Source of the DNA: Ruminococcus sp.
Lineage (GTDB): Bacteria > Bacillota > Clostridia > Oscillospirales > Acutalibacteraceae
DNA length: 64,000 bases
Assembly: GCA_017457955.1 (NCBI GenBank)
Contig: JAFTGL010000014.1
Coordinates: forward strand, 31,822-95,821
Direction: 5' to 3'
Shown: one piece after another, positions 26,838-58,656 of the stretch
Numbering within the stretch: the stretch's first letter is position 1
Layout of the letters: each line of letters begins with the position of its first letter
Translations under genes and position numbers: made by a program
The notes under the pieces: generated by a model
The model's input: the letters and a program-made list of their open reading frames with translations, nothing else
What the model was told of the DNA's origin: nothing
The model's database searches: none

Positions 26838-27110
26838 ATGAAGCAAAAAGGAAATGTGGTAAAGATCATTGCAAGCGCGGCGAAGAATCCGAATATCAAG
26901 CCCGCCGCGATCCGTGAACTGATGAAGAAGCTGGATATGAACGAAAAGGGCTTTGCGGTCATCATGAATGTCACCGTCGATACTGTGCGGCTCTGGACTG
27001 CCGGCGCGGTCAAGCCCTGCGGTACGGCTATGCGTATCATGCAGATACTCAACGCCTGTCCCGAGGTCGTCAACAGCGTTTTCTCAGTGACGGAGGACAT
27101 TCATGCCTGA
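26838..27110 (+). CDS. Small HTH regulator
   Basis: 90 aa with TAGGAGG upstream. Residues 25-75 (IRELMKKLDMNEKGFAVIMN, then VTVDTVRLWTAGAVKPCGTA) fit the HTH of HigA/NadS-like regulators. It overlaps the next gene by 8 nt, so the two are coupled. Likely a DNA-binding regulator or copy-control protein of the element. Confidence 0.65.
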   Translation: MKQKGNVVKIIASAAKNPNIKPAAIRELMKKLDMNEKGFAVIMNVTVDTVRLWTAGAVKPCGTAMRIMQILNACPEVVNSVFSVTEDIHA

Positions 27111-29115
27111 ACGTCCTTTACATGAGGACTTCGGCGAAAAGATCGGCGGTGCAAAAAAAGACCTTTGGAGATCCCGGGGGCTTTACGCCGACGATCTGGA
27201 TGAAATGAACGGCCGCGAGGCTGATAAGTACGTTACAAAAGATAACGTCTGGAAAAAGCCTGATTATCAGGCGCTGCACGACGACGGCGTTCCGGTCGAT
27301 GTCGTGTACTTTATCAAAAAGGTTCGTGACAGTCTGAATGTCAGACCTGTCATTTACCGCAATTACTCTCCCGAGGAACGGAAACAGGTTCAGAAACGGT
27401 ATATTAATACCGTCCGTCAGTTGCAGGCGGCCATGGAGAAGGTTCGATCTATCGATGACGCTATGCAGGCGTTTGACCGTTTCTATATCGACAATGGATA
27501 TTTGAAACCGAGCACGGATTCATACGGCAGAAATTCGTTTGAAAGAACAAGCGAGTATTCTTTCAATCCTGCCTTATCCTCAAAGCTGTTCTCGACGCTG
27601 AGGGTGACGTCGGAATCTAACTTCCGTTATGATTTCACATCAAAAGCGAAAAGAGATCAGTTCCTCGTTCCGAAGGATCAGAAGATACCGCGCGGGTACG
27701 ATGTACACCTCTATGACGGCAAAGGCTATTCTCGCAGGGATGACTGGCAGGCTGACACCTACTTTGTCACAAAGGGACATTCCATCTTGCAGACAAATAT
27801 CGCCACCCGTGAAGAAGCGATCCGCTGGGCGCAGGATCATGCGAAAAGCAAAACGAAAGTCGGCAAACGGCGCTTTGTCCCTCCGCAGTTGGAGCATATC
27901 AACCGAACAGGTCCCGATTACCGCAACGGTCAGGATATTGTCGGACAGCATTATCTCGATACCTTCGGTTTTCGCGGCGGCGAGTTCGGCAACTGGCTGA
28001 ATCAGCTCGACCGTCAGGCGTCCCTGAATATGGGCTTTGAGGCTTTGAAGGATCTTGCAACAGCGCTGCATATCTCAGACAAGGATATTGCTTTTGCCGG
28101 TACGCTGGCGATCGCGTTTGGCGCTCGCGGCAGCGGCAACGCGGCAGCGCACTATGAACCGCTGCGCAAGGTCATCAATCTGACCAAAATGCACGGTGCC
28201 GGCGCTCTCGCCCATGAATGGTGGCACGGCCTTGACGATTACCTCGGCGGAGTGAAAGGCACCGGCGGTATGCTTTCCGATAACGCACGATACTATGAGC
28301 CGATGAAACGGCTGGTTGATACGATCAAGTTCAAGTCTGAAACGCCTGAACAGGCGAAGGCTCGTGTTGAACAATCCAATGCGCGGCAGAGAAAATCAGC
28401 CGAGGCATGGGTCGATTCCGTGATGAAAAGCACGGTCTACCATACCGACGAACCGATCATCATTGAGCGGTATGAGGCGCTGAAAGCTGACTTTTTGAAA
28501 GGCGTACCGGATACCGTTTTCAAGCTGAGTGTTCTGAAAAAAGAGATCACCGGGCATGTCATTCCGAAAAGCACCTGTCAGGATCTTGAAGTTCAGGAAT
28601 ACATCATGCACAGGATTCAGAATCAGGGCGAACCGACGCCGCAGCGCATCGAGACGGATTACTACAAAAGCTCTCAAAAGATGGGCAGCAGCACCGAGAA
28701 GGACGGCGGCTATTGGGACAGCGCGGTTGAAATGACAGCGCGTGCATTTGCCTGTTATGTCAAGGACAGGCTGCCGTATCAGTCAGACTATCTTGTCGGT
28801 CACGCTGAGAGCTGCGTTGGACTGTACACCAACAAAGACGGCAGCACCGAGGTCGTCAGGGCTTACCCGCAGGGTGAAGAACGCAAGGCAATCAACGCCG
28901 CGTTTGACAATCTGATCGCCGAGCTGAAAAAGGAGCTGGTATTTACTCATACCGAAGAAGTGCCCTCCCTGCCTCTGCCTAAGGAGCAGTCGCCGCAGCA
29001 GCTATCTATTCTTGATGATGAAAAGCCGTCTGTACTCGGTCAGCTCGCCGCGGCGAAGATCGCGCAGAAAGCCGCGCCCCACTCACCGAAAAAGGATCAT
29101 GAACAGTCGTTGTAG
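27103..29115 (+). CDS. Large polyvalent protein with LPD1-like zincin
   Basis: 670 aa, GGAGG upstream. Near residue 367-378 is GALAHEWWHGLD, a zincin motif with His371, Glu372 and His375, embedded in a region typical of large polyvalent proteins of ICEs and phages (LPD1-like). The N-terminal 90 residues begin DFGEKIGGAKKDLW. Such proteins are proposed to travel with the DNA and disarm recipient functions. The C-terminus carries the shared tail KPSVLGQLAAAK...EQSL seen in many proteins of this element. The zinc site looks intact. The substrate is unknown. Confidence 0.7.
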   Translation: MPERPLHEDFGEKIGGAKKDLWRSRGLYADDLDEMNGREADKYVTKDNVWKKPDYQALHDDGVPVDVVYFIKKVRDSLNVRPVIYRNYSPEERKQVQKRYINTVRQLQAAMEKVRSIDDAMQAFDRFYIDNGYLKPSTDSYGRNSFERTSEYSFNPALSSKLFSTLRVTSESNFRYDFTSKAKRDQFLVPKDQKIPRGYDVHLYDGKGYSRRDDWQADTYFVTKGHSILQTNIATREEAIRWAQDHAKSKTKVGKRRFVPPQLEHINRTGPDYRNGQDIVGQHYLDTFGFRGGEFGNWLNQLDRQASLNMGFEALKDLATALHISDKDIAFAGTLAIAFGARGSGNAAAHYEPLRKVINLTKMHGAGALAHEWWHGLDDYLGGVKGTGGMLSDNARYYEPMKRLVDTIKFKSETPEQAKARVEQSNARQRKSAEAWVDSVMKSTVYHTDEPIIIERYEALKADFLKGVPDTVFKLSVLKKEITGHVIPKSTCQDLEVQEYIMHRIQNQGEPTPQRIETDYYKSSQKMGSSTEKDGGYWDSAVEMTARAFACYVKDRLPYQSDYLVGHAESCVGLYTNKDGSTEVVRAYPQGEERKAINAAFDNLIAELKKELVFTHTEEVPSLPLPKEQSPQQLSILDDEKPSVLGQLAAAKIAQKAAPHSPKKDHEQSL

Positions 29116-29126
29116 GGGGTGATTTT

Positions 29127-29882
29127 ATAGACGATGAAAAGAAATATGAGATAGTTGAGGATGATCTGTTTCTTCCCGGTTGCCGTGTCAAGCTGGAACA
29201 CAATCTGTATTTGCATGAATTTGACATTACAGATTTATTGCGGAAAAGTCCTGAGGAAGTCCGAGCTTTATATGATCAGAGCTTTAAGAAGGAAGAAAAC
29301 ATGTATGAGATTCTTCAATCCGGCATGAAGGTGTGGGAAAAGGACGCAATAGAAACACGGCGACTGCAATTAGCGCTGAATTATCTCGAGATCGCTCCCG
29401 TACAGCATACCGGCAATCAGTGGGTCAAGGATGATAAAGGAAACCGAACGATCAGTAACATGGTGTATAAGATGACCTGCAGCATAACTGAAAATACCCG
29501 TTGGAATTTGTGGAGCAGTAACGCTCTCAACAAACGCTGGCATGTTGAATGGCAGGTCATTTTCAACACTCCGAAACCGCACCATTATATTGTGATCGCC
29601 GGAAAGGAGCGCAAGTATTCTGATCGGTATGACGCGGAGAATTATCTGAACGGTCGTCTCCGCGCCTTTGCTAAGTATTTTCAGGAGATCTCACCGCCTG
29701 TGCCGAAGGAGTATGAATACGCTTTTTCGGAAAGCGGAAAGCTGTTGCCCGGTTATCATGTGGAGAGTGAGGAACCAAAACAGGATAAGGATTCCGTTCT
29801 CGGAAAGCTCAGTGAGGCAAAATCGCAGCAGAAGGCCACTCCGGCTACTCCTTCTAAAAAGAAAACGGAGCCGGAAATATGA
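29127..29882 (+). CDS. Polyvalent-type element protein, probable AUA start
   Basis: 251 aa if read from ATA 29127, five bases after AGGGGGTG. The first in-frame ATG (29211) would drop a segment (KKYEIVEDDLFLPG, then RVKLEHN) that matches the N-terminus of the paralogue at 29896. That argues for the upstream start. Middle: NQWVKDDKGNRTISNMVYKM. Near the end: EISPPVPKEYEYAFSESG and LLPGYHVESEEP. Then the shared tail DSVLGKLSEAK. Function unknown. It is arranged as a tandem pair with the next gene. Confidence 0.6.
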   Translation: MDDEKKYEIVEDDLFLPGCRVKLEHNLYLHEFDITDLLRKSPEEVRALYDQSFKKEENMYEILQSGMKVWEKDAIETRRLQLALNYLEIAPVQHTGNQWVKDDKGNRTISNMVYKMTCSITENTRWNLWSSNALNKRWHVEWQVIFNTPKPHHYIVIAGKERKYSDRYDAENYLNGRLRAFAKYFQEISPPVPKEYEYAFSESGKLLPGYHVESEEPKQDKDSVLGKLSEAKSQQKATPATPSKKKTEPEI

Positions 29883-29895: not shown

Positions 29896-30735
29896 ATGTT
29901 GAGGAAAGAAAAGTATTACGGCGTGTTTGACTACGGTGATCGACTTGAACCCGGCATAGAACTGAAAATCGAGCATACCGTTGTGGAGGGTTATGACGAT
30001 AACACTCTGGATTTGGCGCCTGTTATCGCATTAGGGTCAGACGATCTGGCAAAAGCAAGAGACAAGAGCGTTGAAACTGAACAAGCCCTTTTTGAAAAAA
30101 TCAGAGCTTCGGTTCGTGAGTGGGAGCGTCAGGCGGCGGTTACGAAAACCTATAACCGTGCGCTCGAATATCTCAATACTCCGGCAGCCGAACATACTTC
30201 AAATCAATGGGTACATGAGAATTATCATGACCGCGATACCATCAGTAACAAGGTGTATCAAATGAGCGTGTCTGTTTGGGAAGATACCAAATATGACAGA
30301 GCGTCCGGACAGTCGGTACCGATCGCATGGTATGTGACATGGGATGTGCGCACCAATGCTCCGACACGAGGCTATAATGTTGAGATTGCCGGTCAGAATA
30401 GAAAACGCTATACCGACAAAGCAGCGGCGCAAAAATACATCGAGGGACGTAAAAAGGCGTTTGCGCATCTCTTCACAGAAATATCGCCGCCTGTTCCTCC
30501 CGAATATGCTCGACCTTTTATGGTCAACGGCGTTCTGTTGCCCGGCTATACGATACAGGGGCAGGAACCGTCGGTATCCACCAAAACAGCCGACGAGATC
30601 ATCAATGAGATCCTCGGTGTAGAATCTGTCACTAAGGACAAAAAGCCCTCCGTGCTGAAAAAGCTCGCTGAGGGTAACAAAGGAAAAACGGCGTCGGCAA
30701 GGGGCGCGGATAAGAAGGAGGAACAGAGCTTATAA
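29896..30735 (+). CDS. Tandem paralogue of the preceding element protein
   Basis: 279 aa. It shares with its upstream neighbour the blocks NQWVHENYHDRDTISNKVYQ, EISPPVPPEYARPF and LLPGYTIQGQEP, so the pair arose by duplication. TTG 29899 is better spaced from AGGAGG than ATG 29896, and either is possible. It ends with the shared tail KPSVLKKLAEG...EEQSL. No catalytic motif is seen. Similar proteins sit beside polyvalent zincins in other gut Firmicutes elements, as I recall. Function unknown. Confidence 0.6.
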   Translation: MLRKEKYYGVFDYGDRLEPGIELKIEHTVVEGYDDNTLDLAPVIALGSDDLAKARDKSVETEQALFEKIRASVREWERQAAVTKTYNRALEYLNTPAAEHTSNQWVHENYHDRDTISNKVYQMSVSVWEDTKYDRASGQSVPIAWYVTWDVRTNAPTRGYNVEIAGQNRKRYTDKAAAQKYIEGRKKAFAHLFTEISPPVPPEYARPFMVNGVLLPGYTIQGQEPSVSTKTADEIINEILGVESVTKDKKPSVLKKLAEGNKGKTASARGADKKEEQSL

Positions 30736-31142
30736 AGGTTTTAATGGTGGAGCCGGGCAAGGTTCCATACGAAACTGAGGTTGAGAGCGGGTATAAGAAC
30801 ATTCTGAAAGCTCTCGACTGCGATATTTTTCAGGCGACCTATCCGTTTGAGGATATGGTCGCTGTTTTATGTGATGACGAGGGCAAAATCAACGGCTCGA
30901 CGCCGAACCGTGCTTTGTATGACGCTGACGGTGAGATGTACGACATCATTCATGGCAAGTTTATGGTCGTCGGTCTTGGAGAGGAAGATTTCACAGATCT
31001 ATCTCCCGAGCTGATGGAGAAGTTCAAGGAGCGATTCAAGCACCCGGAATCATTCATGCAGCTTTGCGGCAGGGTCGTCGCGATCAAGGAGCCGATACCC
31101 GGTGAAAAAGCGCCCGGTAAGGCTCAGGGTCAAGAGTTATGA
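30732..31142 (+). CDS. DUF3846-like protein, probable AUA start
   Basis: 136 aa from ATA 30732. The start overlaps the upstream TAA as ATAA, ten bases after AAGGAGG. The resulting IKVLMVEPGKVPYE is the usual beginning of DUF3846 proteins; ATG 30744 would remove four conserved residues. Other family-like features: CDDEGKINGSTPNRAL and GKFMVVGLGEEDF. Small proteins of this type are common in conjugative elements and their role is not known. Confidence 0.6.
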   Translation: MKVLMVEPGKVPYETEVESGYKNILKALDCDIFQATYPFEDMVAVLCDDEGKINGSTPNRALYDADGEMYDIIHGKFMVVGLGEEDFTDLSPELMEKFKERFKHPESFMQLCGRVVAIKEPIPGEKAPGKAQGQEL

Positions 31143-31939
31143 TGTGGGCGGCGACGAAAGGCGCTTATCTGCTCACGGTGCAGCTGGACGACTTCTTTCC
31201 CAATCCGCGGCGTGAGGACGAAAACTTCGGTTCGATGATCTGCTTTCACCGTCGTTATCAATTAGGCGACGAGCATGATTACAGTAATTCTGACGATTTG
31301 ATCAAGGATCTGTATATCAAGGCGGCCGGCGGCGGAGATCGCGGCGAGCAAAAGTACGAGGATCTGACAGAAAAGTATGACGTCTGGCCTTTGAGCTCGC
31401 AGCGGATACAGGAGTTGAATCAAGCGCTGATGTCGCAGATCGAAAAAATGTATGTTGTTCTGCCTGTCTATCTGCTCGATCACAGCGGACTTGCTATGAG
31501 TACAACGGACTTTAATGATTGCTGGGACAGCGGACAGGTCGGTATCATCTTTGTCTCCAACGATAAGATCAAAGAAGAATACGAGGTCGGTTCTATTGAG
31601 CCGGTGCTCCGCTTGCAAGTCGAGGAACGGCTGAAAGGTGAAGTTGCCGAGTATGACGCTTTTCTGCGCGGCGAGTGCTATTGCTATGAGTTGTATGAGG
31701 ACGGCGAGTTGGTACATAGCTGCGGCGGATTTATCGGAGCTTTTGATAAAGCTGTCAAGGATATGATTGAGTATCTTCCCGATGACTGTGCCGGAATGGT
31801 GGATGATCTGGTTGAGACAAACGATTCACCCTCTATGGTTCAGACGCTTTTGCAGCACGCACGGATTCAGGTGGATCAGGCAGCGAAGGATCGTGAACAT
31901 CAGTCGCGGCAGAAGTCTCTTGATCCAGTTTTGAGTTGA
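31139..31939 (+). CDS. Element protein with PR-x-D-x-G-x-M-x-C-x-HRRY signature
   Basis: 266 aa; ATG 31139 overlaps the previous stop as ATGA, with ATG 31142 as alternative. The N-terminus (FFPNPRREDENFGSMICFHR, then RYQLGDEH) is a signature I recognise from ICE and phage accessory proteins. No enzymatic motif is visible. The C-terminal region has a weak version of the shared tail (SPSMVQTLLQHA) but ends differently, 58 bp before the group II intron. The last residues may therefore have changed after the insertion. Confidence 0.55.
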   Translation: MMWAATKGAYLLTVQLDDFFPNPRREDENFGSMICFHRRYQLGDEHDYSNSDDLIKDLYIKAAGGGDRGEQKYEDLTEKYDVWPLSSQRIQELNQALMSQIEKMYVVLPVYLLDHSGLAMSTTDFNDCWDSGQVGIIFVSNDKIKEEYEVGSIEPVLRLQVEERLKGEVAEYDAFLRGECYCYELYEDGELVHSCGGFIGAFDKAVKDMIEYLPDDCAGMVDDLVETNDSPSMVQTLLQHARIQVDQAAKDREHQSRQKSLDPVLS

Positions 31940-31997: not shown

Positions 31998-33874
<1,877 letters not shown>

Positions 33875-34790: not shown

Positions 34791-35261
34791 TTGCAGGAAG
34801 AAATCGATCAGAGAACCGTATCGATCACTGTTCAGGCGGCAAAACTGTCGGGACGGGTATTGAAAGCGGCTATGACGGCAGCGCTGCAGAAAATGCAGCA
34901 GCAGCGACATACGCCGAAGGTCGGCCGTAACAGTCTGAAAAAGCTCGCGGGACACGACGGCGGTATGAATACGATCGAGGTCTCAGGGCGGCTGCGTTCC
35001 TTTGAGCGCTATGCCCGAAAATATCAGATAAGGTATCATATAGAAAAAGAGGTCGGCTCCAAGCCGCCTCGCTGGACGGTATATTTCAAGGCGAATCAAG
35101 CTGACGCGCTGACCGCCGCTTTTCAGGAATATACCAACAAGGATCTCAGACGTTCCAAGAAGCCGTCGCTGGTCGCTCAGCTCCGTAAATTCAAGGAGCT
35201 TGTCAAGTCGATCGGCAAGGATCGCGTTAGAAACAAGGAGCACGGAGGTCCCGAACGCTGA
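34791..35261 (+). CDS. pcfB: PcfB-like (DUF3801) conjugation protein
   Basis: 156 aa from TTG 34791. The start (EEIDQRTVSITVQAAKLSGR) and the middle (FERYARKYQIRYHIEKE, WTVYFKANQADALTAAFQEY) match the PcfB family. PcfB proteins work with the VirD4-type coupling protein to bring relaxosome to the channel. Its tail KPSLVAQLRKFKELV is a version of the motif shared by a dozen proteins here, which is notable for a coupling-protein partner. It overlaps virD4 by four bases. Confidence 0.85.
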   Translation: MQEEIDQRTVSITVQAAKLSGRVLKAAMTAALQKMQQQRHTPKVGRNSLKKLAGHDGGMNTIEVSGRLRSFERYARKYQIRYHIEKEVGSKPPRWTVYFKANQADALTAAFQEYTNKDLRRSKKPSLVAQLRKFKELVKSIGKDRVRNKEHGGPER

Positions 35262-37099
35262 GCAAGAACGATATTATCAAAAGATATGTCATTCCGCATT
35301 TACCGTACTTGATCTTTGTATGGATATTTGCAAAGCTCGGTGAGGCGATACGCCTCTCGCCCGGGGTTGACGCCTCGACAAAAATGCTGGGGCTCAGTCA
35401 AGGCTTTTCAGCCGCCTTCGATCACTTTCTGTTCTCTGCATGGATCGATCTTCTTATCGGTATCATTGGCGCAGCAGTAGTACGGCTTATCGTATATGTC
35501 AAAAGCAAGAACGCCAAGAAGTACCGGAAGAATGTCGAGTACGGCAGCGCTCGTTGGGGCAACAAGAAGGATATAGCGCCGTATATGTCAACCGATTCAT
35601 GGGATAACATCATCCTCACGATGACCGAGGGACTGATGATGTCCGGCAGGCCGAAAAATCCTACCTACGCCAGAAACAAGAATGTGCTGGTCGTCGGCGG
35701 GTCCGGTTCCGGTAAGACAAGGTTCTTCATCAAGCCGAACCTTATGCAAATGCACAGCTCGTATGTCGTGACCGATCCGAAAGGAACGGTGCTGATCGAG
35801 TGCGGGAAAATGCTGCAAAAGGGACCGCCGAAGCGTGACAAACAGGGCAATATCGTTCGGGATAAGAGAGGAAAGATCGTGCGTGATCCGTATAAGATCA
35901 GGGTGTTCAATACGATCAACTTCTCAAAATCCATGCACTTCAATCCGTTTGCGTATATACACAGCGAAAAGGATATTTTGAAGATCGTCACTACCCTTAT
36001 TGCCAACACCAAAGGCGAAGGTAAATCCGGCGACGATTTTTGGGTGAAGGCCGAAACGCTGCTCTATACCGCGCTGATCGGGTATATCTACTATGAAGCG
36101 CCGACCGAGGAACAGAACTTCGCTACGCTCGTAGAAATGCTCAACGCTATGGAAGTCCGCGAGGATGACGAGAATTTCAAGAACGCTGTTGACCTATTGT
36201 TTGACGCCCTCGAAAAGAGAGATCCCGATCATTTTGCTCTCAGGCAGTATAAGAAATACAAGTTGGCGGCGGGCAAAACAGCGAAGTCAATCCTGATCTC
36301 CTGCGCGTCGCGTCTGGCTCCCTTCGATATACGGGAAGTCAGAGAAATCACCATGTACGACGAACTGGAATTAGACAAGCTCGGCGACGAACGGACAGCG
36401 CTGTTTCTGATCATGTCGGATACCGACGGCACCTTCGCATTTCTGATCAGCTTGATTTATTCGATCCTGTTTAACAGACTGTGCGAGCGCGCCGACGACA
36501 AGTACGGCGGCCGTCTGCCGGTTCATGTGCGCTGTCTTATTGACGAGGCGGCGAATATCGGTCAGATACCGAACCTCGAAAGGCTGATGGCAACTATCCG
36601 ATCCCGAGAGATTTCCGCGTGTCTTGTATTGCAGGCGCAGTCTCAGTTAAAAGCGCTGTATAAGGATAACGCGGATACGATTATCGGCAACTGCGATTCA
36701 AGCCTGTTTCTCGGCGGTAAGGAAGAAACCACGCTGAAAAGCTGGAACTCCCTGTTGGGTAAGGAAACGATAGATCTGTATAATGAAAGTGTGACGAAGG
36801 GTAATCAGGAGAGTCACGGACAGAACTATCAGAAGCTCGGCAAGGATCTGATGTCGATGGACGAGATCGCCGTGATGGACGGCGGTAAATGTCTGTTGCA
36901 GATCAGGGGTGTGCGTCCATTCTTATCTAAGAAGTACGACATCACCAAGCACCCCAACTACAAGTATTTATCTGACTACGATCAGAAAAATGCTTTTAAC
37001 ATAGAACAATTCTTATCAACACGCTTCAAGCCGGATAAGGATGAAGCGTTTATCAACTATGAGATCAGCGCCGATGAATTGGCGCGTTATTCAAGGTAA
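35258..37099 (+). CDS. virD4: VirD4/TraG-type coupling protein, probable CUG start
   Basis: 613 aa from CTG 35258, which overlaps the pcfB stop as CTGA and lies nine bases from GGAGG. The next start, TTG 35309, would cut into the first membrane helix (RYVIPHLPYLIFVWIFAKLG). Two N-terminal membrane helices; Walker A VVGGSGSGKTRFF near residue 146; Walker B-like CLIDEAANIGQIPN near 426; then TIRSREISACLVLQAQSQLK. It is the hexameric ATPase that links relaxosome and secreted proteins to the type IV channel at the inner membrane. Confidence 0.9.
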   Translation: MSKNDIIKRYVIPHLPYLIFVWIFAKLGEAIRLSPGVDASTKMLGLSQGFSAAFDHFLFSAWIDLLIGIIGAAVVRLIVYVKSKNAKKYRKNVEYGSARWGNKKDIAPYMSTDSWDNIILTMTEGLMMSGRPKNPTYARNKNVLVVGGSGSGKTRFFIKPNLMQMHSSYVVTDPKGTVLIECGKMLQKGPPKRDKQGNIVRDKRGKIVRDPYKIRVFNTINFSKSMHFNPFAYIHSEKDILKIVTTLIANTKGEGKSGDDFWVKAETLLYTALIGYIYYEAPTEEQNFATLVEMLNAMEVREDDENFKNAVDLLFDALEKRDPDHFALRQYKKYKLAAGKTAKSILISCASRLAPFDIREVREITMYDELELDKLGDERTALFLIMSDTDGTFAFLISLIYSILFNRLCERADDKYGGRLPVHVRCLIDEAANIGQIPNLERLMATIRSREISACLVLQAQSQLKALYKDNADTIIGNCDSSLFLGGKEETTLKSWNSLLGKETIDLYNESVTKGNQESHGQNYQKLGKDLMSMDEIAVMDGGKCLLQIRGVRPFLSKKYDITKHPNYKYLSDYDQKNAFNIEQFLSTRFKPDKDEAFINYEISADELARYSR

Positions 37100-38508: not shown

Positions 38509-38943
38509 ATGAGTAACAGCAAAGAAAACATCACGCCCGAAGCGGCGGAAAACAACGACCTCAAACTCGAGGTCAGCGTCAGACCGATCGCTCCGCGCAA
38601 CAATCTGGTAGGCTTCGCCACCGTCACCATCAACGACAGCTTTGCCGTCGAAAACATCCGCGTCTGCAAGGGTGAAAAGGGATTGTACGTCAATATGCCG
38701 TCCCAGCAGGACAGTCAGGGAAACTGGCGCGACGTGTTCAAGCCCATCACCGCGGAATCGCGCAAGCTGCTCATTTCGGCAATCCTCAACGGCTATACCG
38801 CCGCGATCGATAAGATGCGCGAGACGGTAGACGCGACGAAGGAGGCGGATAAGCCTTCTCTGACCGGCGCTCTTAAAGATAACGCCGGTAAGGTCAAAAG
38901 TCAGCCAAAGAAAACTGCCGGCAAGAGTGAGCAGAGTCTTTGA
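38509..38943 (+). CDS. SpoVG-family protein with element tail
   Basis: 144 aa with AAGGGGG upstream. Residues 25-100 match SpoVG (VSVRPIAPRNNLVGFATVTI, FAVENIRVCKGEKGLYVNMP). SpoVG proteins bind nucleic acid and act as global regulators; element copies are widespread. Beyond the SpoVG domain it carries an extra C-terminal tail, KPSLTGALKDNAGK...SEQSL, matching that of unrelated proteins here. It overlaps the methyltransferase gene by one base. Confidence 0.8.
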   Translation: MSNSKENITPEAAENNDLKLEVSVRPIAPRNNLVGFATVTINDSFAVENIRVCKGEKGLYVNMPSQQDSQGNWRDVFKPITAESRKLLISAILNGYTAAIDKMRETVDATKEADKPSLTGALKDNAGKVKSQPKKTAGKSEQSL

Positions 38944-39500: not shown

Positions 39501-39501
39501 T

Positions 39502-48316: not shown

Positions 48317-48710
48317 TTTCGGCGTACCGGAGGATCGCCGGCCATTCAGACCGCACGACAACGACGCCGGCGCAGATGTGTATATGCCCTATGAATGTAC
48401 TGTGAAGCCCGGCGAGATCATAAAAATACCGCTCGGGTTCGGTATCGAGGTACCGGACGGCTTCGCGGGCTATGTATTTCCTCGCAGCAGTATGGCAGTC
48501 AAGGGGCTGGTATGCGAGCTGCCGCCGGTCGATTCCGGCTATCGCGGCGAGATTCACGCAATTATCAGCAATGTCAGCAATAAGGAGCATACGATCCGCA
48601 AGGATGACCGGATCGGTCAGCTTGTCATTATGCCTGTGATCATTGCCGATTTTGTATCGGAGCACGGCAGTCAGCGCGGTTTGGGCGGATTCGGCAGTAC
48701 AGGAGAATAA
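48297..48710 (+). CDS. dut: dUTP diphosphatase
   Basis: 137 aa. The five dUTPase motifs are present: DNDAGADVYMP (I), FPRSSMAVKGL (II), ELPPVDSGYRGEIHAII (III, with the catalytic Asp), RKDDRIGQLVI (IV) and RGLGGFGSTG (V). It hydrolyses dUTP to dUMP, the substrate of the ThyX-like neighbour, and keeps uracil out of DNA. Length is normal for a trimeric enzyme. Confidence 0.92.
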   Translation: MKIRLLDFGVPEDRRPFRPHDNDAGADVYMPYECTVKPGEIIKIPLGFGIEVPDGFAGYVFPRSSMAVKGLVCELPPVDSGYRGEIHAIISNVSNKEHTIRKDDRIGQLVIMPVIIADFVSEHGSQRGLGGFGSTGE

Positions 48711-48722: not shown

Positions 48723-49145
48723 ATGATATGCGTTGACGCGAGGAATGAGATATTTGAACATATCGAGCTGTTTGACGCTCCGGCTATGTTCACGAACGCC
48801 CGGGTTGACCACTCTACGATTCCCGACGGGCTGTTCTGCTATGATGTGCGCGGCTCAGACGAAGATCCGGGCGCTTTGTGTGTGATCGAGCCTTCTGTGC
48901 TGGTCAATCACTCCGGCACGGTCATCGGGATCGAGGATTATATGCTTAAAAAAGGACAGGCGAAGTATATTGCTTCTCATATCAACTTTCTCGGCGACGA
49001 GATCACGCTGGACGAATTCTGCAAACAGCACCATGTAGAGGTCTCAGAGCCGAAAAAAGGTGTGCTGGACGCCTTGAAAGAAAACAAGGAAAAAGCGGCG
49101 CGGCAGCCTGTCAAGTCTGTGAAAGCCGGAGAGCAGTCGAGATAA
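48723..49145 (+). CDS. LPD28-like polyvalent-associated protein
   Basis: 140 aa with GGGGGTG upstream. The core FTNARVDHSTIPDGLFCYDV followed by VNHSGTVIGIED fits the LPD28-type domain of ICE polyvalent proteins. It ends with the shared tail as KKGVLDALKENKEKA...GEQSR. Role unknown; perhaps delivered with DNA. Confidence 0.6.
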   Translation: MICVDARNEIFEHIELFDAPAMFTNARVDHSTIPDGLFCYDVRGSDEDPGALCVIEPSVLVNHSGTVIGIEDYMLKKGQAKYIASHINFLGDEITLDEFCKQHHVEVSEPKKGVLDALKENKEKAARQPVKSVKAGEQSR

Positions 49146-49300: not shown

Positions 49301-49304
49301 AGGC

Positions 49305-50394: not shown

Positions 50395-52506
50395 TTGAAA
50401 TTAGTAATTGCAGAAAAGCCGTCTGTGGCGCTGTCTATCGCAAAAGTGCTCGGCGCCTCTAAAATGCACGACGGCTATCTGGATGGCGGCGGATATGTGG
50501 TGAGCTGGTGCTTCGGGCACCTGCTGGCGTTTGCCGATCCCGGGCTCTATGACGAGACGCTGAAAGCATGGTCGTATGATACGCTGCCGATCATACCCGA
50601 TAAATGGCTGTTCAGCGTTGAAAGGGACAAGAAAAAGCAGTTGAATCTTCTCTGTGATCTGATGAAGATGAAAGAGGTCGAAAGTATCGTATGCGCGACG
50701 GACGCGGGACGCGAGGGCGAGCTGATTTTCAGGCGCGTGTATTACTACTCAAAGTGTAACAAGCCGATCGAAAGGCTGTGGATCTCGAGTATGGAGGATG
50801 AAGCGATCCGCGAGGGGTTTGATCACCTTCGTTCCGGCGAGGATTACGAGCTGCTTTATCAGGCGGCGCTTTGCCGTGCTCAGGCGGACTGGATCGTCGG
50901 GATCAATGCGTCAAGGCTGTTTTCCGTCCTTTACAAATCACGCCTGAATGTCGGGCGCGTGATGTCCCCGACGCTTGCGCTCATGGTTAAGCGTGAAGCG
51001 GATATACACAGCTTCAAAAGCAAGCCATTCTATATTTCCGAGATCACCTGCGGCGGTTTTACGGCGAGTGCGGAGAGAACAGACGATCAGCACACGGCCG
51101 AGAATATCAGGCGCGCTTGTGACGGTCAGTCGGCAAAGGTCGCAAAGATCGATACGCATAAAAAGTCCGAGAAGCCGCCGAAGCTCTATGATCTGACGAC
51201 CTTACAGCGGGAATGTAACCGCATTTTCGGGTTTACGGCGCAGCAGACGCTTGATTATCTCCAATCATTATATGAAAAGAAGCTCTCCACCTATCCGAGA
51301 ACGGACAGCTGCTATCTGACCGAGGATATGCGCGATACGGCGGAGAAGCTGATCGCATGGCTCCGTGAAAACACGGCTGTCGGCAAGGGGTTTATGGGTA
51401 ATGCCGATATAACAAGGATAATGGATAATAAGAAGGTCACGGACCACCATGCGATCATTCCTACAATGGAGATAACAAAATGCGATCCGGCGGAGCTGCC
51501 GAAGGGCGAACGCTGTGTGCTGGAGCTGATCGAGGCGCGGCTGCTGTGCGCTGTCGCTCAGCCGAACATCTATGAGGCAACAACGGTCACGCTGACCTGT
51601 GCCGATCATGCGTTTACCGCCAAAGGTAAAACCGTACTCCAATCGGGATGGAAAGAGATCGAACGCCGATTCCTTTCTGAACTGAAACAGAGTGCGGACG
51701 CCGCTGAACCGGTATTACCAAAGCTGACAGAAGAACAGCTCTTTGATTATGTGACAGCGAGCGTCCGCGAAGGAAAGACTACACCGCCGAAGCGCTATAC
51801 CGAGGATACGCTGCTTTCAGCTATGGAAACGGCTGGCGCCGAAGAAACACCCGATGACGCAGAGCGCAAAGGCTTGGGTACGTCGGCGACCAGGGCGTCT
51901 ATCCTTGAAAAGCTCGTCACATCCGGCTTTGTCGAGCGCAGAAAGAAGCTGCTGATCCCCACACAGACCGGTATCAATCTGATCAGGATACTGCCGGATA
52001 ACATCAAGTCTCCGCTGCTTACGGCTGAATGGGAATCGCAGTTGAAGCAGATCGAGCGCGGCGAAATAAGCGCCGAGGATTTTATGACCGGCATTACCGA
52101 TATGATCCGTGACCTGATACAGACGCACGATCACCCTGAAAAGGAGTATTTGCCGCTGTTTGCTAAGGAAGATACCGAGAGCGGTGTTATCGGCGTATGT
52201 CCGCGCTGCGGTTCTTCTGTCGTCGCAAAGCATAAAGGATTTTTCTGTGAGAACCGCGATTGCTCTTTCATACTCTGGAAGGACAATCCCTTTTTCAGAT
52301 CGAAAAAGAAACAGCTCACAAAGAGTATTGCGACAGCTCTTTTGTCGGACGGCCGCGCTTTTGTCGATGATCTATACAGCGAGAAGAAGAACAAGAACTA
52401 CGACGCTTTCGTCGTCCTTAACGATACGGGCGGCAAATATGTCAATTTCAAGATAGAGTTTCCGCAAAGATCTGATCATAAGCGTAAGAAAGGCAGCCGT
52501 AAGTGA
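50395..52506 (+). CDS. topB: DNA topoisomerase III
   Basis: 703 aa from TTG 50395, with TAGGAGG upstream. TOPRIM part: KLVIAEKPSVALSIAKVLGA and ATDAGREGELIFRR. Catalytic Tyr300 in LSTYPRTDSCYL. C-terminal zinc-ribbon-like CPRCGSSVVAKHKG..CENRDC near 601, then a conserved FSKKK-type region. Type IA topoisomerases of this kind are carried by most Tn1549-type elements and probably resolve intermediates of transfer replication. It overlaps the next gene by 4 nt. Confidence 0.92.
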   Translation: MKLVIAEKPSVALSIAKVLGASKMHDGYLDGGGYVVSWCFGHLLAFADPGLYDETLKAWSYDTLPIIPDKWLFSVERDKKKQLNLLCDLMKMKEVESIVCATDAGREGELIFRRVYYYSKCNKPIERLWISSMEDEAIREGFDHLRSGEDYELLYQAALCRAQADWIVGINASRLFSVLYKSRLNVGRVMSPTLALMVKREADIHSFKSKPFYISEITCGGFTASAERTDDQHTAENIRRACDGQSAKVAKIDTHKKSEKPPKLYDLTTLQRECNRIFGFTAQQTLDYLQSLYEKKLSTYPRTDSCYLTEDMRDTAEKLIAWLRENTAVGKGFMGNADITRIMDNKKVTDHHAIIPTMEITKCDPAELPKGERCVLELIEARLLCAVAQPNIYEATTVTLTCADHAFTAKGKTVLQSGWKEIERRFLSELKQSADAAEPVLPKLTEEQLFDYVTASVREGKTTPPKRYTEDTLLSAMETAGAEETPDDAERKGLGTSATRASILEKLVTSGFVERRKKLLIPTQTGINLIRILPDNIKSPLLTAEWESQLKQIERGEISAEDFMTGITDMIRDLIQTHDHPEKEYLPLFAKEDTESGVIGVCPRCGSSVVAKHKGFFCENRDCSFILWKDNPFFRSKKKQLTKSIATALLSDGRAFVDDLYSEKKNKNYDAFVVLNDTGGKYVNFKIEFPQRSDHKRKKGSRK

Positions 52507-53309
52507 GCGCGTCTACCTGTTTTGAGTACGGCGGCTATCATTTCTTTCCCTTGCGGAGATTCACGAATGGAGAGGGCGATTTTTTCGCTCTCTCCAAGCG
52601 TCTTGAACGTGATCCGGCATTAGGCCTATCCGACTATAAAGACCGTCAGAAGTTTCCGTATTCGTATGACGAGTTTTACAAAGTAACAACTAATCCCAAT
52701 TACGACATATTTTGCTGTGTGGAGAACGGTAAAATCTATGTGCCGGCGACACACGAATTGTTTATCTATCATAATCCGAGCGATTATCGCAAACGCGAGC
52801 AGCGGATCATCAAGAACCGTCTGCTGATCAATACGAAGAATCAGACCTTTAACATGCAGGAGATCGATAACCGCCGTTTTATGTTCAATCCAAAAACCGG
52901 TATCCTGCTTCTCGGATCGCAGCTCCCTCCGTCGCGGAAGATACGCGGCAGTCACGCGGAGGATCTGTCTAATGCCGGTATTTACTGCGGGTATGATGAT
53001 TATGTGCGCGGCTGGGTCGGCGTCGGCAAGGATTATCCTCACGGCGTTATCCACTTTGCTCCGAATGTTGACGACAGGAATACCGAGTTGTATAACCGTG
53101 CCTTTGATACGCTGGAAATGTTCGCGCAGAACGGCGCTGAGGCTGAAACGGTTGTAAGGGCGCTCGGAAAACGCTGGGAACAGCCGTTATTTTCGATCCT
53201 AAGTGATTTGGAGCAAAAGCCGTCTATCTATGAACAGCTAAAACAAAAACCGGCAGTCAATAACGCTCAACCAAAACAACCATCAAAAAAGAAGGAGGCG
53301 GTAATATGA
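52503..53309 (+). CDS. Element protein of unknown function with shared tail
   Basis: 268 aa from GTG 52503. Not recognised as a named domain. Visible: YGGYHFFPLRRFTNGEGDFF at the N-terminus, NTKNQTFNMQEIDNRRFMFN in the middle and NAGIYCGYDDYVRGWVGVGK. Tail KPSIYEQLKQKPAV followed by a Lys-rich end. Four coupled genes (52503-55124) have the same design of distinct body plus shared tail. Confidence 0.55.
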   Translation: MSASTCFEYGGYHFFPLRRFTNGEGDFFALSKRLERDPALGLSDYKDRQKFPYSYDEFYKVTTNPNYDIFCCVENGKIYVPATHELFIYHNPSDYRKREQRIIKNRLLINTKNQTFNMQEIDNRRFMFNPKTGILLLGSQLPPSRKIRGSHAEDLSNAGIYCGYDDYVRGWVGVGKDYPHGVIHFAPNVDDRNTELYNRAFDTLEMFAQNGAEAETVVRALGKRWEQPLFSILSDLEQKPSIYEQLKQKPAVNNAQPKQPSKKKEAVI

Positions 53310-53944
53310 GTATTACCAATATCGAAGCGGAACAGTTACGCGAAATGTCTGACAAGGAAGGTCTGATCATTCAGGGCTGCGGCGGTCCCCTGCAGGAATG
53401 GGTTGACGGTATCAACGATATGCTGACGGCGGACGGCATTTTGAAGAACGGCAGTCGTTTTGAAGATGTTTTTACCTTTGAACACGAAAAAGTGACGTGC
53501 TTGCTCTTTCCGTTTGAAGGTGTGGAGCTTGACGTCGGTAAGCTCGCGGTCTGGCGTATGAAAACGCACGGTCAGTTTTACGGCACATGGCTCTCGGATT
53601 ATGTGCCGAACCGCTTAGGCGGATTCATCGACGAATCACAGTACGCGACCGATAAGCCTGATTGTGCTTTGATCGGGCAGGATGGCAACATATTCAATCT
53701 CGTCGGGATCGCTTCTCATACTCTCAAACGGTACGGCCTCGCGGATCAGGCGAAAGAAATGTCCTCGCGTGTGATGTCGAGCGGCAGCTACAACGAAGCG
53801 CTGGCTATCATCGGCGAGTATGTCAATATTACTGACGAGGAACATGTCAGAGAGTATCGCCCGTCTGTCGTGAAGAAGATCAAGGACGCGAAGGTCGCGG
53901 AGCCGTCCAATCAGCCGAAGCAGCACAAGCCGCAGGAAAGGTAG
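53306..53944 (+). CDS. Element protein of unknown function with shared tail
   Basis: 212 aa, overlapping the previous stop as ATGA. Body: EMSDKEGLIIQGCGGPLQEW and VDGINDMLTADGILKNGSRF. The latter pattern recurs in ICE proteins that accompany YodL/DUF4316 genes. Tail RPSVVKKIKDAKVAEPS. Role unknown. Confidence 0.55.
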   Translation: MSITNIEAEQLREMSDKEGLIIQGCGGPLQEWVDGINDMLTADGILKNGSRFEDVFTFEHEKVTCLLFPFEGVELDVGKLAVWRMKTHGQFYGTWLSDYVPNRLGGFIDESQYATDKPDCALIGQDGNIFNLVGIASHTLKRYGLADQAKEMSSRVMSSGSYNEALAIIGEYVNITDEEHVREYRPSVVKKIKDAKVAEPSNQPKQHKPQER

Positions 53945-53952: not shown

Positions 53953-54426
53953 ATGGATGACAGAGTTTACGGCGTATGGGCTGTCCGCAGCGGCAGCTCG
54001 ATGTTCGGCCACGCCGAGGCGTGGTGTAAAGATCACGGCAAAGTGATCGAGTTTGAATCCAAAGCAGAAGCGGAGAAGTATGCCGCTGAACGCAACGCCG
54101 AGACGTCTCCGTACTGTCACTATCATGTGATGTCAAAGCAGCATGACCGCGATTCGATCCGGTATCCGATCGAGCGTACACCTGACGATAAGATCCCCGC
54201 GGTCGGTCGTCCGTCTCATTTACCTGAGAACTATCTGCTGAACGCCGAGCTGAAAGAAGAAGCGCAAACAGGCAACTATAATATGCTTGACGGCAGGATG
54301 GATAATCTTGCGCCGGAGAGCGCGGCGGAAAAGTCCTCCGTGATCGACAAGCTGAAAGTCGATCAGCCGGATCAGGAGCCGAGGCAGCGCTCTCAAAGGA
54401 GTAAGAGTCAGGAGCGTGATAGATGA
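53953..54426 (+). CDS. DUF4316-like element protein
   Basis: 157 aa. The N-terminal half (YGVWAVRSGSSMFGHAEAWC) is a small alpha/beta domain known beside relaxase genes. The C-terminal half (ENYLLNAELKEEAQTGNYNM, then LDGRMDNL) fits DUF4316, ending with the shared tail as SSVIDKLKVDQ. DUF4316 may thus be the larger domain around the tail. Function unknown. Confidence 0.6.
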   Translation: MDDRVYGVWAVRSGSSMFGHAEAWCKDHGKVIEFESKAEAEKYAAERNAETSPYCHYHVMSKQHDRDSIRYPIERTPDDKIPAVGRPSHLPENYLLNAELKEEAQTGNYNMLDGRMDNLAPESAAEKSSVIDKLKVDQPDQEPRQRSQRSKSQERDR

Positions 54427-55124
54427 TACCGCAGGTATTCCGCGACATAGATATTCTCGGTTCCTTAGAGCAGATTATGGATCAGCACACAAAGCATTAC
54501 AAGGATGATTTCATCATAGACAGGAATATTATCTGTAAGCTGGCGAATTCACCTGACGAAACAGACCGCCACCTGATATGGCTGTGTCGTCCGCTCGGAA
54601 CGCATATCATGCGGGAGCGGGATATATACCTCGAAGGAACGCACGAAAACAAGTGCTTTTCGTTTTATCACGATCAGACAAAGGAAAATGTGCTGGCGTA
54701 TGCTCTCCATCTGAAAAGCAGAGACGGCTTCAATGTCACCGGCGACGTCTACCAGCTCGATTACGCGGCTGAGGTCGAGCGCGTCAAGTTGCTGACCTGC
54801 CCGATCCACCGTATCACATTTTTCTTTCCCGATGATACGGAGTTTACAGTGCCGTATCGAACCTATCGCGGATCTCTCAACGAGCTGTCTCAAAAGCACG
54901 GCGAGTTAAAAGCAATGCGATATGAGCCTGAGAGCGAAGCGGAGCTCAATGATATTCTCCGACGTCAGTGGTTCAAGCGTGACCGGCACGCCGACCTCGG
55001 GGATATAACAAAGCATATCGAGGGGTTGAACAAACCGTCTGTCCGCGACAAGCTGCAGGAGGCAAAGACCGAGATCAAGCCTTCGGAGGACAACGCACCG
55101 AAGAAGGATGAACAATCCTTATGA
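54423..55124 (+). CDS. Element protein of unknown function with shared tail
   Basis: 233 aa, overlapping both neighbours by 4 nt. Body: GSLEQIMDQHTKHYKDDFII, HLIWLCRPLGTHIMRERDIY and YALHLKSRDGFNVTGDVYQL. I do not recognise the fold. Tail KPSVRDKLQEAKTEI...DEQSL, one of the clearest copies. It is coupled to mobC, so it may be made with the relaxosome. Confidence 0.6.
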   Translation: MIPQVFRDIDILGSLEQIMDQHTKHYKDDFIIDRNIICKLANSPDETDRHLIWLCRPLGTHIMRERDIYLEGTHENKCFSFYHDQTKENVLAYALHLKSRDGFNVTGDVYQLDYAAEVERVKLLTCPIHRITFFFPDDTEFTVPYRTYRGSLNELSQKHGELKAMRYEPESEAELNDILRRQWFKRDRHADLGDITKHIEGLNKPSVRDKLQEAKTEIKPSEDNAPKKDEQSL

Positions 55125-57633: not shown

Positions 57634-57647
57634 CATAAACAATTATT

Positions 57648-57679
57648 GAGCGAGCGTTTCGGCGTCTCGCTCATTTTTT
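57648..57679 (+). terminator. Terminator after the first XRE gene
   Basis: GAGCGAG/CTCGCTC stem with an 11-nt loop, followed by ATTTTTTAT. Confidence 0.85.
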
Positions 57680-57700
57680 ATATAAGGGGGTTTTAGATAA

Positions 57701-58159
57701 TTGCATAACGGTGAAAGAATCCGCTTCTTTCGCAAAAGAAAAGGTCTGACACAGAAACAGTTAGGCATATTGGCAGGCTTTTCCGATAAGGTGGCCGACG
57801 TCCGTATTGCTCAATATGAGGTCGGCAAACGGAGATGTAAAGAGAAAACGATAGAGGCGATAGCAAAGGTGCTGGACGTATCGCCTCTTGCTTTGAGTAT
57901 TCCTGAGATCAACGATCCGCTCAAACTGCTTCACACCATGTTTGCGCTGGAGGATACCTACGGCGAGTGGGTTGAGGGAAACAACGGAGCAGTCTCCTTG
58001 AACTTTGATCCGTATAACAATAAGGACGCGGCGCGGCTATATGTTATGCTCTGCGCATGGCGCGAGCAATACGAAAAGCGTCTCAACGGAAAAATCACAA
58101 AGAAAGAATATGATAACTGGCGCTACAACTTTACTGACAAAGGCGGGAATGAAGCATGA
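57701..58159 (+). CDS. XRE-family regulator 2
   Basis: 152 aa from TTG 57701 after GGGGG. HTH: RIRFFRKRKGLTQKQLGILA, with YEVGKRRCKEKTIEAIAKVL following. The C-terminal half (FALEDTYGEWVEGNNGAVSL, then YNNKDAARLYVMLCAW) is shared by regulators preceding relaxase genes in gut ICEs. It overlaps the next gene by 4 nt and may control the relaxase operon. Confidence 0.8.
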   Translation: MHNGERIRFFRKRKGLTQKQLGILAGFSDKVADVRIAQYEVGKRRCKEKTIEAIAKVLDVSPLALSIPEINDPLKLLHTMFALEDTYGEWVEGNNGAVSLNFDPYNNKDAARLYVMLCAWREQYEKRLNGKITKKEYDNWRYNFTDKGGNEA

Positions 58160-58656
58160 GAAAGCATTTGCCGGTCTATCTTCACTCTGCCGGTTACGCT
58201 AAGGAGTATCACGAAACAGAATACTATCAGATGTCGTTTCGTTTGAATGTCAAGTGTCGTGACGCGATTCAGGAGGCGATCGACAGTCATTATCAAAATG
58301 ACCGTTTGAATGAAGCTGCCGTACATGAAGTAGTCGAGCAATTCGGCTATGAGCGGACAATGGTGCTTCTCGCAAATACAGTGATACAAAAGGAGTGGGA
58401 CGGACGGTTTTCGCCCGAGAATCGGGAATGGGCGCACATGATCCCGGCGCCGTGCGATATGCTCGGTGACAGAGGCAAACGGTTTATGATCGATAAGGTT
58501 CATCCCGGACTCGTCGATCTGTTCATTACGCAGGTTCGCCGTGAGCACGAAAGAGCTATCGGTCGTCGTCCTTCTGTAAAAACAGCCTTGAAAGAAAACA
58601 GCGCTCAGGCTGCGGCAGAACCGAAGCCTCACAAGAAAAGCGAGCAATCTTTATAG
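58156..58656 (+). CDS. DUF3849-like protein with shared tail
   Basis: 166 aa, overlapping the XRE stop. The pattern PVYLHSAGYAKEYHETEYYQ, LLANTVIQKEWDGRFSPENR and HPGLVDLFITQVR fits DUF3849 of conjugative elements. Tail RPSVKTALKENSAQA...SEQSL. Function unknown; it lies 17 nt ahead of the relaxase. Confidence 0.7.
   Translation: MRKHLPVYLHSAGYAKEYHETEYYQMSFRLNVKCRDAIQEAIDSHYQNDRLNEAAVHEVVEQFGYERTMVLLANTVIQKEWDGRFSPENREWAHMIPAPCDMLGDRGKRFMIDKVHPGLVDLFITQVRREHERAIGRRPSVKTALKENSAQAAAEPKPHKKSEQSL

What the first reader, a model, noticed from the sequence alone, without database searches (positions are those of the whole stretch)
27103..58656. A shared C-terminal tail on at least a dozen unrelated proteins of the conjugative element
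Seen directly: proteins with different bodies end in [K/R/D][P/S]S[V/I/L]-x3-L-x-[E/D/N]-[A/N]..., then a Lys/Pro-rich stretch and often EQSL. Clear copies end at 29115 (KPSVLGQLAAAK), 29882 (DSVLGKLSEAK), 30735 (KPSVLKKLAEG), 35261 (KPSLVAQLRKF, PcfB), 38943 (KPSLTGALKDN, SpoVG), 49145 (KGVLDALKENK), 53309 (KPSIYEQLKQK), 53944 (RPSVVKKIKDA), 54426 (SSVIDKLKVDQ), 55124 (KPSVRDKLQEA) and 58656 (RPSVKTALKEN). A weaker copy ends at 40236. The EQSL codons differ between copies, so the likeness is kept at protein level, not by recent DNA copying. Bodies include a zincin, a SpoVG protein, an LPD28-like protein and a DUF3849 protein. Inference: the tail is a recruitment or secretion signal read by VirD4/PcfB, letting the element send a set of proteins into the recipient. 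PcfB itself carries a copy, which could mean the tail binds a common partner.
Basis: partly seen in the sequence, partly recalled or inferred. Interest (0 to 1): 0.85.

Follow-up and report, generated by a model that had tools for sequence, protein, structure and literature searches.

The report
Shared C-terminal tail, conjugative element proteins
About a dozen otherwise unlike proteins of a gut-bacterial conjugative element end in the same short helix-plus-basic tail as the small protein encoded next to the DNA-export motor, which looks like an address label, possibly for sending proteins into the recipient cell along with the DNA.

Summary
All 12 tails are in the window; a profile trained without the window or its closest relatives still finds 11. 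The tail is bipartite: a probable N-capped amphipathic helix, [K/R]-P-S-[V/I]-xxx-L, a basic linker, and a tip ending about 29 residues after the V. In other Tn1549-type elements it ends nearly every PcfB, and also ArdA, ArdC-N/zincin/YodL proteins, SNF2-like giants, element SpoVG, LPD and DUF proteins and a few MobA/MobL relaxases, but not VirD4, VirB4, VirB6 or the elements' own relaxases. Typical SpoVG and divergent ArdA-like proteins lack it. In 197 genomes, tails at E<=0.001 occur only where PcfB does.

Key result: the core of the PcfB tail co-varies with the cargo tails of its own element. Lactobacillales plasmids use other cores, again shared by the PcfB relative and ArdC. Five VirD4 plasmids without a PcfB relative show no such match overall. 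This points to one element-encoded reader at the VirD4-PcfB complex.

Best reading: a recruitment signal, probably for export into the recipient. Export is untested.

The parts
29014..29112 (+). tail of zincin/LPD1 protein (gene 27103-29115)
   Evidence: score 29.2; LPD1 E 2.4e-20
29778..29879 (+). tail of LPD34 protein a (gene 29211-29882)
   Evidence: score 26.7; PF18852
30634..30732 (+). tail of LPD34 protein b (gene 29896-30735)
   Evidence: score 24.9; PF18852
35151..35258 (+). tail of PcfB (gene 34791-35261), encoded directly upstream of VirD4
   Evidence: score 28.1; DUF3801 PF12687, profile 2-131 of 131
35309..37099 (+). VirD4-like coupling protein, no tail; proposed docking site together with PcfB
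   Evidence: score -4.5; several plasmid relatives are annotated VirD4-like, CD1115 family
38842..38940 (+). tail of element SpoVG (gene 38509-38943)
   Evidence: score 19.6; PF04026
40123..40233 (+). tail of 244-aa protein, weakly DUF3848-like (gene start taken as 39502; the mechanical ORF is 39394-40236)
   Evidence: score 20.0, 12.9 with the independent profile; DUF3848 E 0.0049, below its cut-off
49044..49142 (+). tail of LPD28 protein (gene 48723-49145)
   Evidence: score 26.1; PF18843
53208..53306 (+). tail of 268-aa protein without Pfam family (gene 52503-53309)
   Evidence: score 27.5
53849..53941 (+). tail of 212-aa protein without Pfam family (gene 53306-53944)
   Evidence: score 25.5
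54322..54423 (+). tail of DUF4316 protein (gene 53953-54426)
   Evidence: score 14.3, 8.4 with the independent profile; PF14195 match at residues 91-135 overlaps the first 12 residues of the tail
55023..55121 (+). tail of 233-aa protein without Pfam family (gene 54423-55124)
   Evidence: score 30.6
58558..58653 (+). tail of DUF3849 protein (gene 58156-58656)
   Evidence: score 22.8; PF12960
58692..60080 (+). element relaxase (MobA/VirD2 type), no core tail
   Evidence: PF03432; score -1.5

Best explanation
The tail is a portable docking signal. Its probable N-capped amphipathic helix (hydrophobic face at positions 0, +4, +7, +11), flexible basic linker and short C-terminal tip let otherwise unlike element proteins bind one element-encoded reader at the coupling-protein complex, that is VirD4 together with PcfB. 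PcfB, made from the gene directly upstream of VirD4, carries the same tail. It most likely either presents the docking surface or marks where cargo assembles. Much of the recruited set looks useful at entry into a new cell (antirestriction ArdA and ArdC-N, zincins, helicases, a CHC2 zinc-finger fusion, SpoVG), so the likely outcome is export through the T4SS with or ahead of the DNA. Shown: the shared tail, its position, its restriction to PcfB-bearing elements in the samples searched, co-variation of its core with the PcfB tail, and its absence from machine proteins.
For: Position: 77 of 94 whole-protein hits lie within 75 residues of the C-terminus, 43 of them with the core K 30-34 residues from it. 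Frozen profile on 109 further loci: 171 of 1764 unique proteins versus 5.3 in shuffles; without three loci that overlap training regions, 163 of 1702 versus 3.1. In those loci PcfB 46 of 48; transfer-machine, processing and VirD2-type relaxase families 0 of 318. First set: PcfB 26 of 27; VirD4 0 of 52; 1 of 249 machine or processing proteins, judged a false positive by eye. Same bodies: typical SpoVG copies without tail, element copies with one; element-type ArdA 11 of 13, divergent ArdA-like 0 of 14. Tail profile at E<=0.001 in 26 of 41 PcfB-bearing and 0 of 156 PcfB-less genomes. PcfB-cargo core co-variation p 0.0008, again in further loci p 0.0009, p 0.0003 without overlaps and p 0.0013 without the window group. 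PcfB relative versus ArdC-type protein: 0 of 100,000 permutations reach the matched score over 9 lineages, and over 14 when the 5 PcfB-less plasmids are pooled in. The core is at least as conserved as the body in orthologues while the linker diverges.
Against: The elements' own VirD2-type relaxases lack the core (0 of 27, 0 of 8), and a profile comparison of their C-termini with the tail was negative. Tip co-variation was strong in the first set (0 of 20,000 permutations) but not in the second (p 0.19; 0.15 and 0.14), and the tip is less conserved than the body in two of three orthologue families. A looser first test of PcfB-cargo co-variation gave p 0.054. In two of nine PcfB-ArdC pairs the best match is not on the cores. 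One PcfB relative, the DUF3801 protein of L375, has no tail. Same-codon use at identical residues is 0.40 against 0.317 expected, so some tail copying at DNA level has happened.
Confidence: 0.6

Rival explanations
1. Donor-side scaffold: the tail gathers element proteins on PcfB or VirD4 inside the donor (for example to organise DNA processing or protect the element) and nothing is exported.
For: The tail goes with PcfB rather than with VirD4 alone: of 8 order genomes with VirD4 but no PF12687, none has a tail hit at E<=0.1 (some of these VirD4 hits are distant or partial). PcfB itself carries the tail.
Against: Many carriers are antirestriction or anti-defence type proteins expected to act in the recipient. 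ArdC of pSa and primase TraC1 of RP4 are transferred in conjugation according to passages seen of PMC5512222.
Confidence: 0.22
2. PcfB is itself just another exported substrate; VirD4 alone reads the tail and PcfB is not an adaptor.
For: PcfB ends in the same tail even when its body grows to 370 aa, as a substrate would.
Against: VirD4 of the CD1115 family is present in plasmids without a PcfB relative, and there ArdC and the gene before VirD4 show no matching tail overall (5 plasmids, 61 of 120 permutations reach the matched score), although one of the five, Listeria L382, does score high (45). PcfB or DUF3801 directly precedes VirD4 in the window and in 7 of 8 annotated plasmid regions that have it (not L111).
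Confidence: 0.25
3. A degradation or localisation tag read by a host protein (protease adaptor, polar factor).
For: Short C-terminal tags of this size can be proteolysis signals (recalled).
Against: Tails follow the element, not the host: four PcfB copies in one genome (G110) have three different tail types, and near-identical PcfB tails occur in different genomes. In the order sample the tail at E<=0.001 is confined to PcfB-bearing genomes.
Confidence: 0.06
4. A copied DNA cassette or translation-coupling sequence with no protein-level function.
For: Some pairs look like recent DNA copies (L110: 9 of 10, L109: 7 of 9 identical residues use the same codon).
Against: The five EQSL ends in the window use five different codon strings. 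Window pairs with at least 7 identical residues share 13 of 37 codons. The core is conserved at protein level while the linker diverges.
Confidence: 0.03

Closest known systems
XVIPCD of Xanthomonadales T4SS effectors (passages of PMC6759196)
   Same: One conserved C-terminal module on diverse effector bodies; there reported to interact with VirD4 and used to find substrates by sequence.
   Different: XVIPCD is described there as a domain of antibacterial effectors with immunity partners in Gram-negative bacteria. This tail is about 35 residues, Gram-positive, often on antirestriction-type proteins, and tied to PcfB. No sequence comparison was made here.
Polyvalent proteins of Tn1549-like elements and phages (PMC5512222, passages only)
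   Same: Several of the same bodies (ArdC-N, zincin, LPD domains), predicted there to be delivered early.
   Different: The passages shown (12 of 28 places, 12) mention no short shared C-terminal tail, and the main text has 0 occurrences of 'secretion signal'. The whole paper was not read.
F-plasmid protein translocation (PMC8406263, PMC11288057; search listing only)
   Same: A conjugation system that sends several plasmid proteins into recipients.
   Different: Gram-negative; no shared tail is mentioned in the listing text seen.
Pfam DUF3801 (PcfB), DUF6674 and DUF4316
   Same: DUF3801 and DUF6674 matches run over the tail of their own proteins; DUF4316 matches end next to it or overlap its first 12 residues.
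   Different: These are models of single protein families; none describes the tail as a module shared by unlike proteins.

Membership tests
T4SS C-terminal recruitment signal (XVIPCD-like kind) | same C-terminal module on otherwise unlike proteins | tested here: met
T4SS C-terminal recruitment signal (XVIPCD-like kind) | linked to a conjugative or T4SS locus | tested here: met
   26 of 41 PcfB-bearing genomes versus 0 of 156 without. The profile A1 was built from such elements and includes PcfB tails; hits on other proteins alone give 17 of 41 versus 0 of 156 (counted from the tables)
T4SS C-terminal recruitment signal (XVIPCD-like kind) | present on an obligate substrate (relaxase) | tested here: inconclusive
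   VirD2-type relaxases 0 of 27 and 0 of 8. MobA/MobL 4 of 38 over threshold, two of them doubtful by eye, and 3 of 6, one doubtful
T4SS C-terminal recruitment signal (XVIPCD-like kind) | binds VirD4 and directs translocation | not testable with these tools
   needs binding and transfer assays
XVIPCD proper | sequence homology to XVIPCD | not tested
   no comparison made
Pfam DUF4316 | the tail is this domain | tested here: not met
   the match overlaps the first 12 tail residues in 3 of 7 proteins (window, L061, L070) and ends 8 or more residues before the tail in the other 4; many tailed proteins have no DUF4316 match
Pfam DUF3801 (PcfB) | DUF3801 body | tested here: met
   only for the protein at 34791-35261. 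Of the other carriers, the zincin has a match far below the cut-off (E 0.18) and the rest none at E<=1
Polyvalent-type early effector proteins | bodies with LPD, ArdC-N, ArdA, zincin or YodL domains | tested here: met
   for a part of the carriers; several have no Pfam family

The most novel reading that the evidence does not exclude
Gram-positive conjugative elements carry a lineage-coded protein-delivery address. Each lineage has its own helix sequence, shared by PcfB, ArdC and a wider set of entry proteins and changing together with them. The elements then inject a whole kit of antirestriction and anti-defence proteins into recipients, and some MobA/MobL relaxases carry the same address as a ticket to ride the machine.
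Probability: 0.42. Interest if true: 0.9.

Novelty: new variant of a known kind. Interest (0 to 1): 0.82.

Why it matters
A 2025 review calls it surprising that nearly all known Gram-positive T4SS functions are limited to DNA translocation, and calls dedicated effector translocation by these systems a long-standing question, citing evidence for one case in Streptococcus suis (PMC12857230, passages). A short, searchable tail would give a concrete candidate substrate list for Tn1549-type elements and related plasmids, suggest a role for PcfB, and make the question testable with one reporter fusion. In the listings and passages that I saw from ten searches of the open library no paper describes the tail; most subscription journals are not held there.

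Tried and rejected
Relaxase resemblance: VirD2-type relaxase ends show a K-x-N-[V/I]-xx-[I/L]-L pattern and a basic tip by eye, but hhalign of 42 tails against 14 relaxase ends gave 0.2% probability. Rejected as homology. Tip frequency by a simple pattern: cargo 25 of 49, PcfB 8 of 26, MobA/MobL 7 of 10, VirD2-type relaxases 6 of 27, machine 4 of 243, other 46 of 1435. Suggestive only.

Co-variation runs: the loose first version (29 elements, 57 cargo, including false positives) gave p 0.054 for the core. With cargo score at least 14 (21 elements, 44 cargo) core p 0.0008 and tip 0 of 20,000 permutations. Second set: 13 non-redundant elements out of 38, core p 0.0009, tip p 0.19. On checking, three of the 109 second-set loci (L259, L262, L263) overlap training regions; without them core p 0.0003 and tip 0.15, and without the window's close group as well (8 elements) core p 0.0013 and tip 0.14. 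Rows dropped by eye as false positives: L035:19016, L049:19245, L064:10131 (looks like a group II intron reverse transcriptase), L070:2389, L104:572, L053:8487 and L223:17295, L255:18512. Tails identical in two elements were counted once, and hits whose core began more than about 60 residues from the end were left out. The simple gene caller missed the window proteins at 53953 and 58156, so they are absent.

ArdC pairing test: I had read the C-termini before running it, so it is not blind. Grouping of the plasmids was checked afterwards on bodies without the tail: the genes before VirD4 in L370 and L371 are distant PcfB relatives (for example L370 to the L375 DUF3801 protein E 9.7e-8 in a 15-sequence comparison; PF12687 at 23.1 bits for L370, under the 24.1 cut-off, and no PF12687 match for L371), those in the five control plasmids are not. 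With only the 7 lineages over the PF12687 cut-off, 3 of 5040 permutations reach the matched score. The four Bacilli plasmids alone give p 0.042, the minimum possible. Plasmid regions fetched but not used in the test: L111 and L112 (no ArdC-type gene taken), L373 and L374 (ArdC or the gene before VirD4 not in the stretch), L375 (no ArdC found; its DUF3801 protein has no tail), L376, L379 and L383 (no VirD4 in the stretch), L377 (same lineage as L369).

Phylum sample: 6 of 299 genomes have the tail at E<=0.001 and all 6 are among the 14 with PF12687, but outside the window genome and G013 the hits are PcfB's own tails.

PDB search with the PcfB profile found no convincing relative (best E 0.019, an engineered protein).

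A mistake mended on checking: a draft said that DUF4316 ends before the tail; in 3 of 7 matches it overlaps the first 12 residues.
Full report
What is there. The window holds a Tn1549-type conjugative element between about 24 and 60 kb, with DUF6017, PcfB, VirD4, VirB6, PrgI, VirB4, CHAP, topoisomerase, MobC and relaxase genes. Labels without a Pfam call (VirD4, VirB6, PrgI, VirB4, CHAP, topoisomerase, MobC) rest on similarity to annotated relatives; the name Tn1549-type is recalled from this gene set. Twelve of the 38 genes listed end in the tail: zincin/LPD1, two LPD34 paralogues, PcfB, SpoVG, a 244-aa protein, LPD28, three proteins without a Pfam family, a DUF4316 protein and a DUF3849 protein. 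They score 14.3 to 30.6; the other 26 score 3.2 or less.

More than chance. A profile iterated over 82 regions (the window, 77 stretches around 42 PcfB sites, four plasmid regions) finds 77 of 1841 unique proteins, against 3.25 expected from shuffled ends. Of 94 hits over 482,410 windows of whole proteins, 77 lie within 75 residues of the C-terminus. The frozen profile on 109 further loci finds 171 of 1764, against 5.3. Three of those loci overlap training regions; without them it finds 163 of 1702, against 3.1.

Anatomy. In 121 non-redundant tails, chosen by a profile score of at least 14 apart from two window tails added by hand, position -3 is K or R in 108, -2 is P in 77, -1 is S in 116, 0 is V, I or L in 115, and +4 is L, I, M or V in all 121. 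Hydrophobic residues are also frequent at +7 (66%), +11 (56%) and +1 (56%); 0, +4, +7 and +11 is the spacing of one face of an alpha-helix, and helix formation is inferred. A linker of about 20 residues follows (29% K+R, 1.4% aromatic). Then come K at -6/-7, E at -4, E or S at -2, and L, R or I at the end. The distance from position 0 to the end has a median of 29 (quartiles 28-31).

Who carries it. In the Tn1549-like element (name recalled) of Enterococcus faecalis plasmid pMG2200, 3 of the 21 CDS examined carry it: PcfB, the 1306-aa ArdA/ArdC-N/YodL/LPD25 protein, and a 314-aa protein. VirD4, VirB6, VirB4, C40, topoisomerase, relaxase and MobC do not. A Monoglobus element repeats the pattern. 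Elsewhere the tail ends ArdA, SNF2-like proteins of 2474 and 2653 aa, a Strawberry-notch/MutS_I protein of 2587 aa, DUF3848, DUF3849, DUF6674, LPD16 and a CHC2 zinc-finger fusion. Similar giants of 2462 aa (L035, over threshold) and 2875 aa (L039, under it) were not scanned against Pfam. PcfB is tailed in 26 of 27 and 46 of 48 unique copies, even when its body is extended to 370 aa.

Controls on the same bodies. Of 39 unique SpoVG proteins examined, only L176 (14.7) is over the 10.5 threshold; the element copies L094 (10.2) and L089 (8.9) look tailed by eye; the rest, taken to be chromosomal, have none. Of 30 ArdA loci, element-type ArdA (family E below 1e-19) with the C-terminus in hand: 11 of 13; divergent ArdA-like proteins: 0 of 14, one of them a fragment read in a doubtful frame; three loci were cut off before the end. 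MobA/MobL relaxases: 4 of 38 over threshold, of which L051 and L128 look genuine and L129 and L134 doubtful; L184, L124 and L130 look tailed but score 7.3-8.0. In the second set 3 of 6 pass, L312 doubtful.

Distribution. In 197 genomes of the order, PF12687 (PcfB) is present in 41. The tail profile at E<=0.001 hits 26 genomes, all among those 41. The profile was built from such elements and includes PcfB tails, so I also counted only hits on other proteins from the same tables: 17 of 41 against 0 of 156. At E<=0.1 five further genomes without PF12687 appear (G009, G039, G098, G114, G191). Eight genomes have VirD4 (E<=1e-40) but no PF12687, and none has a tail hit. In a phylum sample 6 of 299 genomes have the tail, all with PF12687.

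One reader per element. The core of the PcfB tail resembles the cargo tails of its own element more than those of others (p 0.0008). This held in further loci (p 0.0009) and without overlaps or the window group (p 0.0003 and 0.0013). The tip did so only in the first set. Outside the Tn1549 group the sequence changes but the sharing stays. In a Lacticaseibacillus rhamnosus plasmid PcfB, ArdC and a Toprim protein share TL-xx-KI-xx-AK. In a Lactococcus plasmid the gene before VirD4 and ArdC share TM-x-ERI-xx-AK. In Carnobacterium both share a longer L-xx-EI-xx-AK helix. In a pCF10-type plasmid (by its Prg and Pcf gene names) PcfB and the ArdC-like protein after VirD4 share F-[D/E]-ERL. Over nine lineages with an ArdC-N protein, 0 of 100,000 permuted pairings reach the matched score; in 7 of 9 the best match is on the cores (an earlier draw of 100,000 had one). 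Pooling all 14 plasmids and elements gives 0 of 100,000; the five without a PcfB relative give 61 of 120. Pairs were chosen by gene position and annotation, but after I had seen the ends.

Selection. In orthologues from related elements the 12-residue core is as conserved as the body or more so (zincin 0.77 vs 0.64, LPD34 0.64 vs 0.59, SpoVG 0.83 vs 0.59). The linker falls to 0.35, 0.46 and 0.70, and the tip stands at 0.47, 0.33 and 0.70. Codon use (0.40 same codon against 0.317 expected) shows mainly protein-level likeness with some DNA copying.

Mechanism. The simplest account is a docking helix read by an element-encoded partner at the VirD4-PcfB complex. Export is inferred from the kinds of body and from the transfer of ArdC of pSa and TraC1 of RP4 stated in PMC5512222 (passages). 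Against it, the elements' own relaxases lack the core, so relaxase recruitment would use another route. A donor-side scaffold is not excluded.

Comparison. The nearest known kind is the C-terminal T4SS recognition domain XVIPCD (PMC6759196, passages). The tail works like it in layout but was not compared by sequence and is not filed as a member.

Noticed in passing
L382:2060-2611 and L382:19899-20981: In Listeria innocua plasmid pLIS44 (no PcfB relative) the protein before VirD4 and ArdC share a different C-terminal ending (local score 45); possibly another lineage of the same idea.
   Followed up: no
31139-31939: 266-aa protein ends in a PSM-xxx-L stretch that may be a decayed tail (score 2.0); a similar protein end in L236:9174-9974 scores 10.9.
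   Followed up: partly
L039:4725-13352 and L087:148-6705: Two giant proteins have an internal tail-like segment (KKS[L/V]-xxx-L...) far from the C-terminus.
   Followed up: no
L111:5816-6343 and L111:17747-18244: On plasmid pEFs17-1 a DUF3801 protein and an unlike 165-aa protein share K-P-[L/I]-F-[H/S]-I-[K/R]-x-L-Q near the C-terminus; chosen by eye, not tested.
   Followed up: no
32483-33781: Reverse-transcriptase-like ORF, by my reading a group II intron protein, sits between the LPD/DUF3846 genes and PcfB.
   Followed up: no
4414-23432: Upstream of the element lies a run of sortase-like genes, a 3416-aa surface protein and two pilin-like proteins (my reading of the ORF translations).
   Followed up: no
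47465-48710: The element carries a ThyX-type thymidylate synthase (Pfam Thy1) and a dUTPase-like protein (my reading).
   Followed up: no
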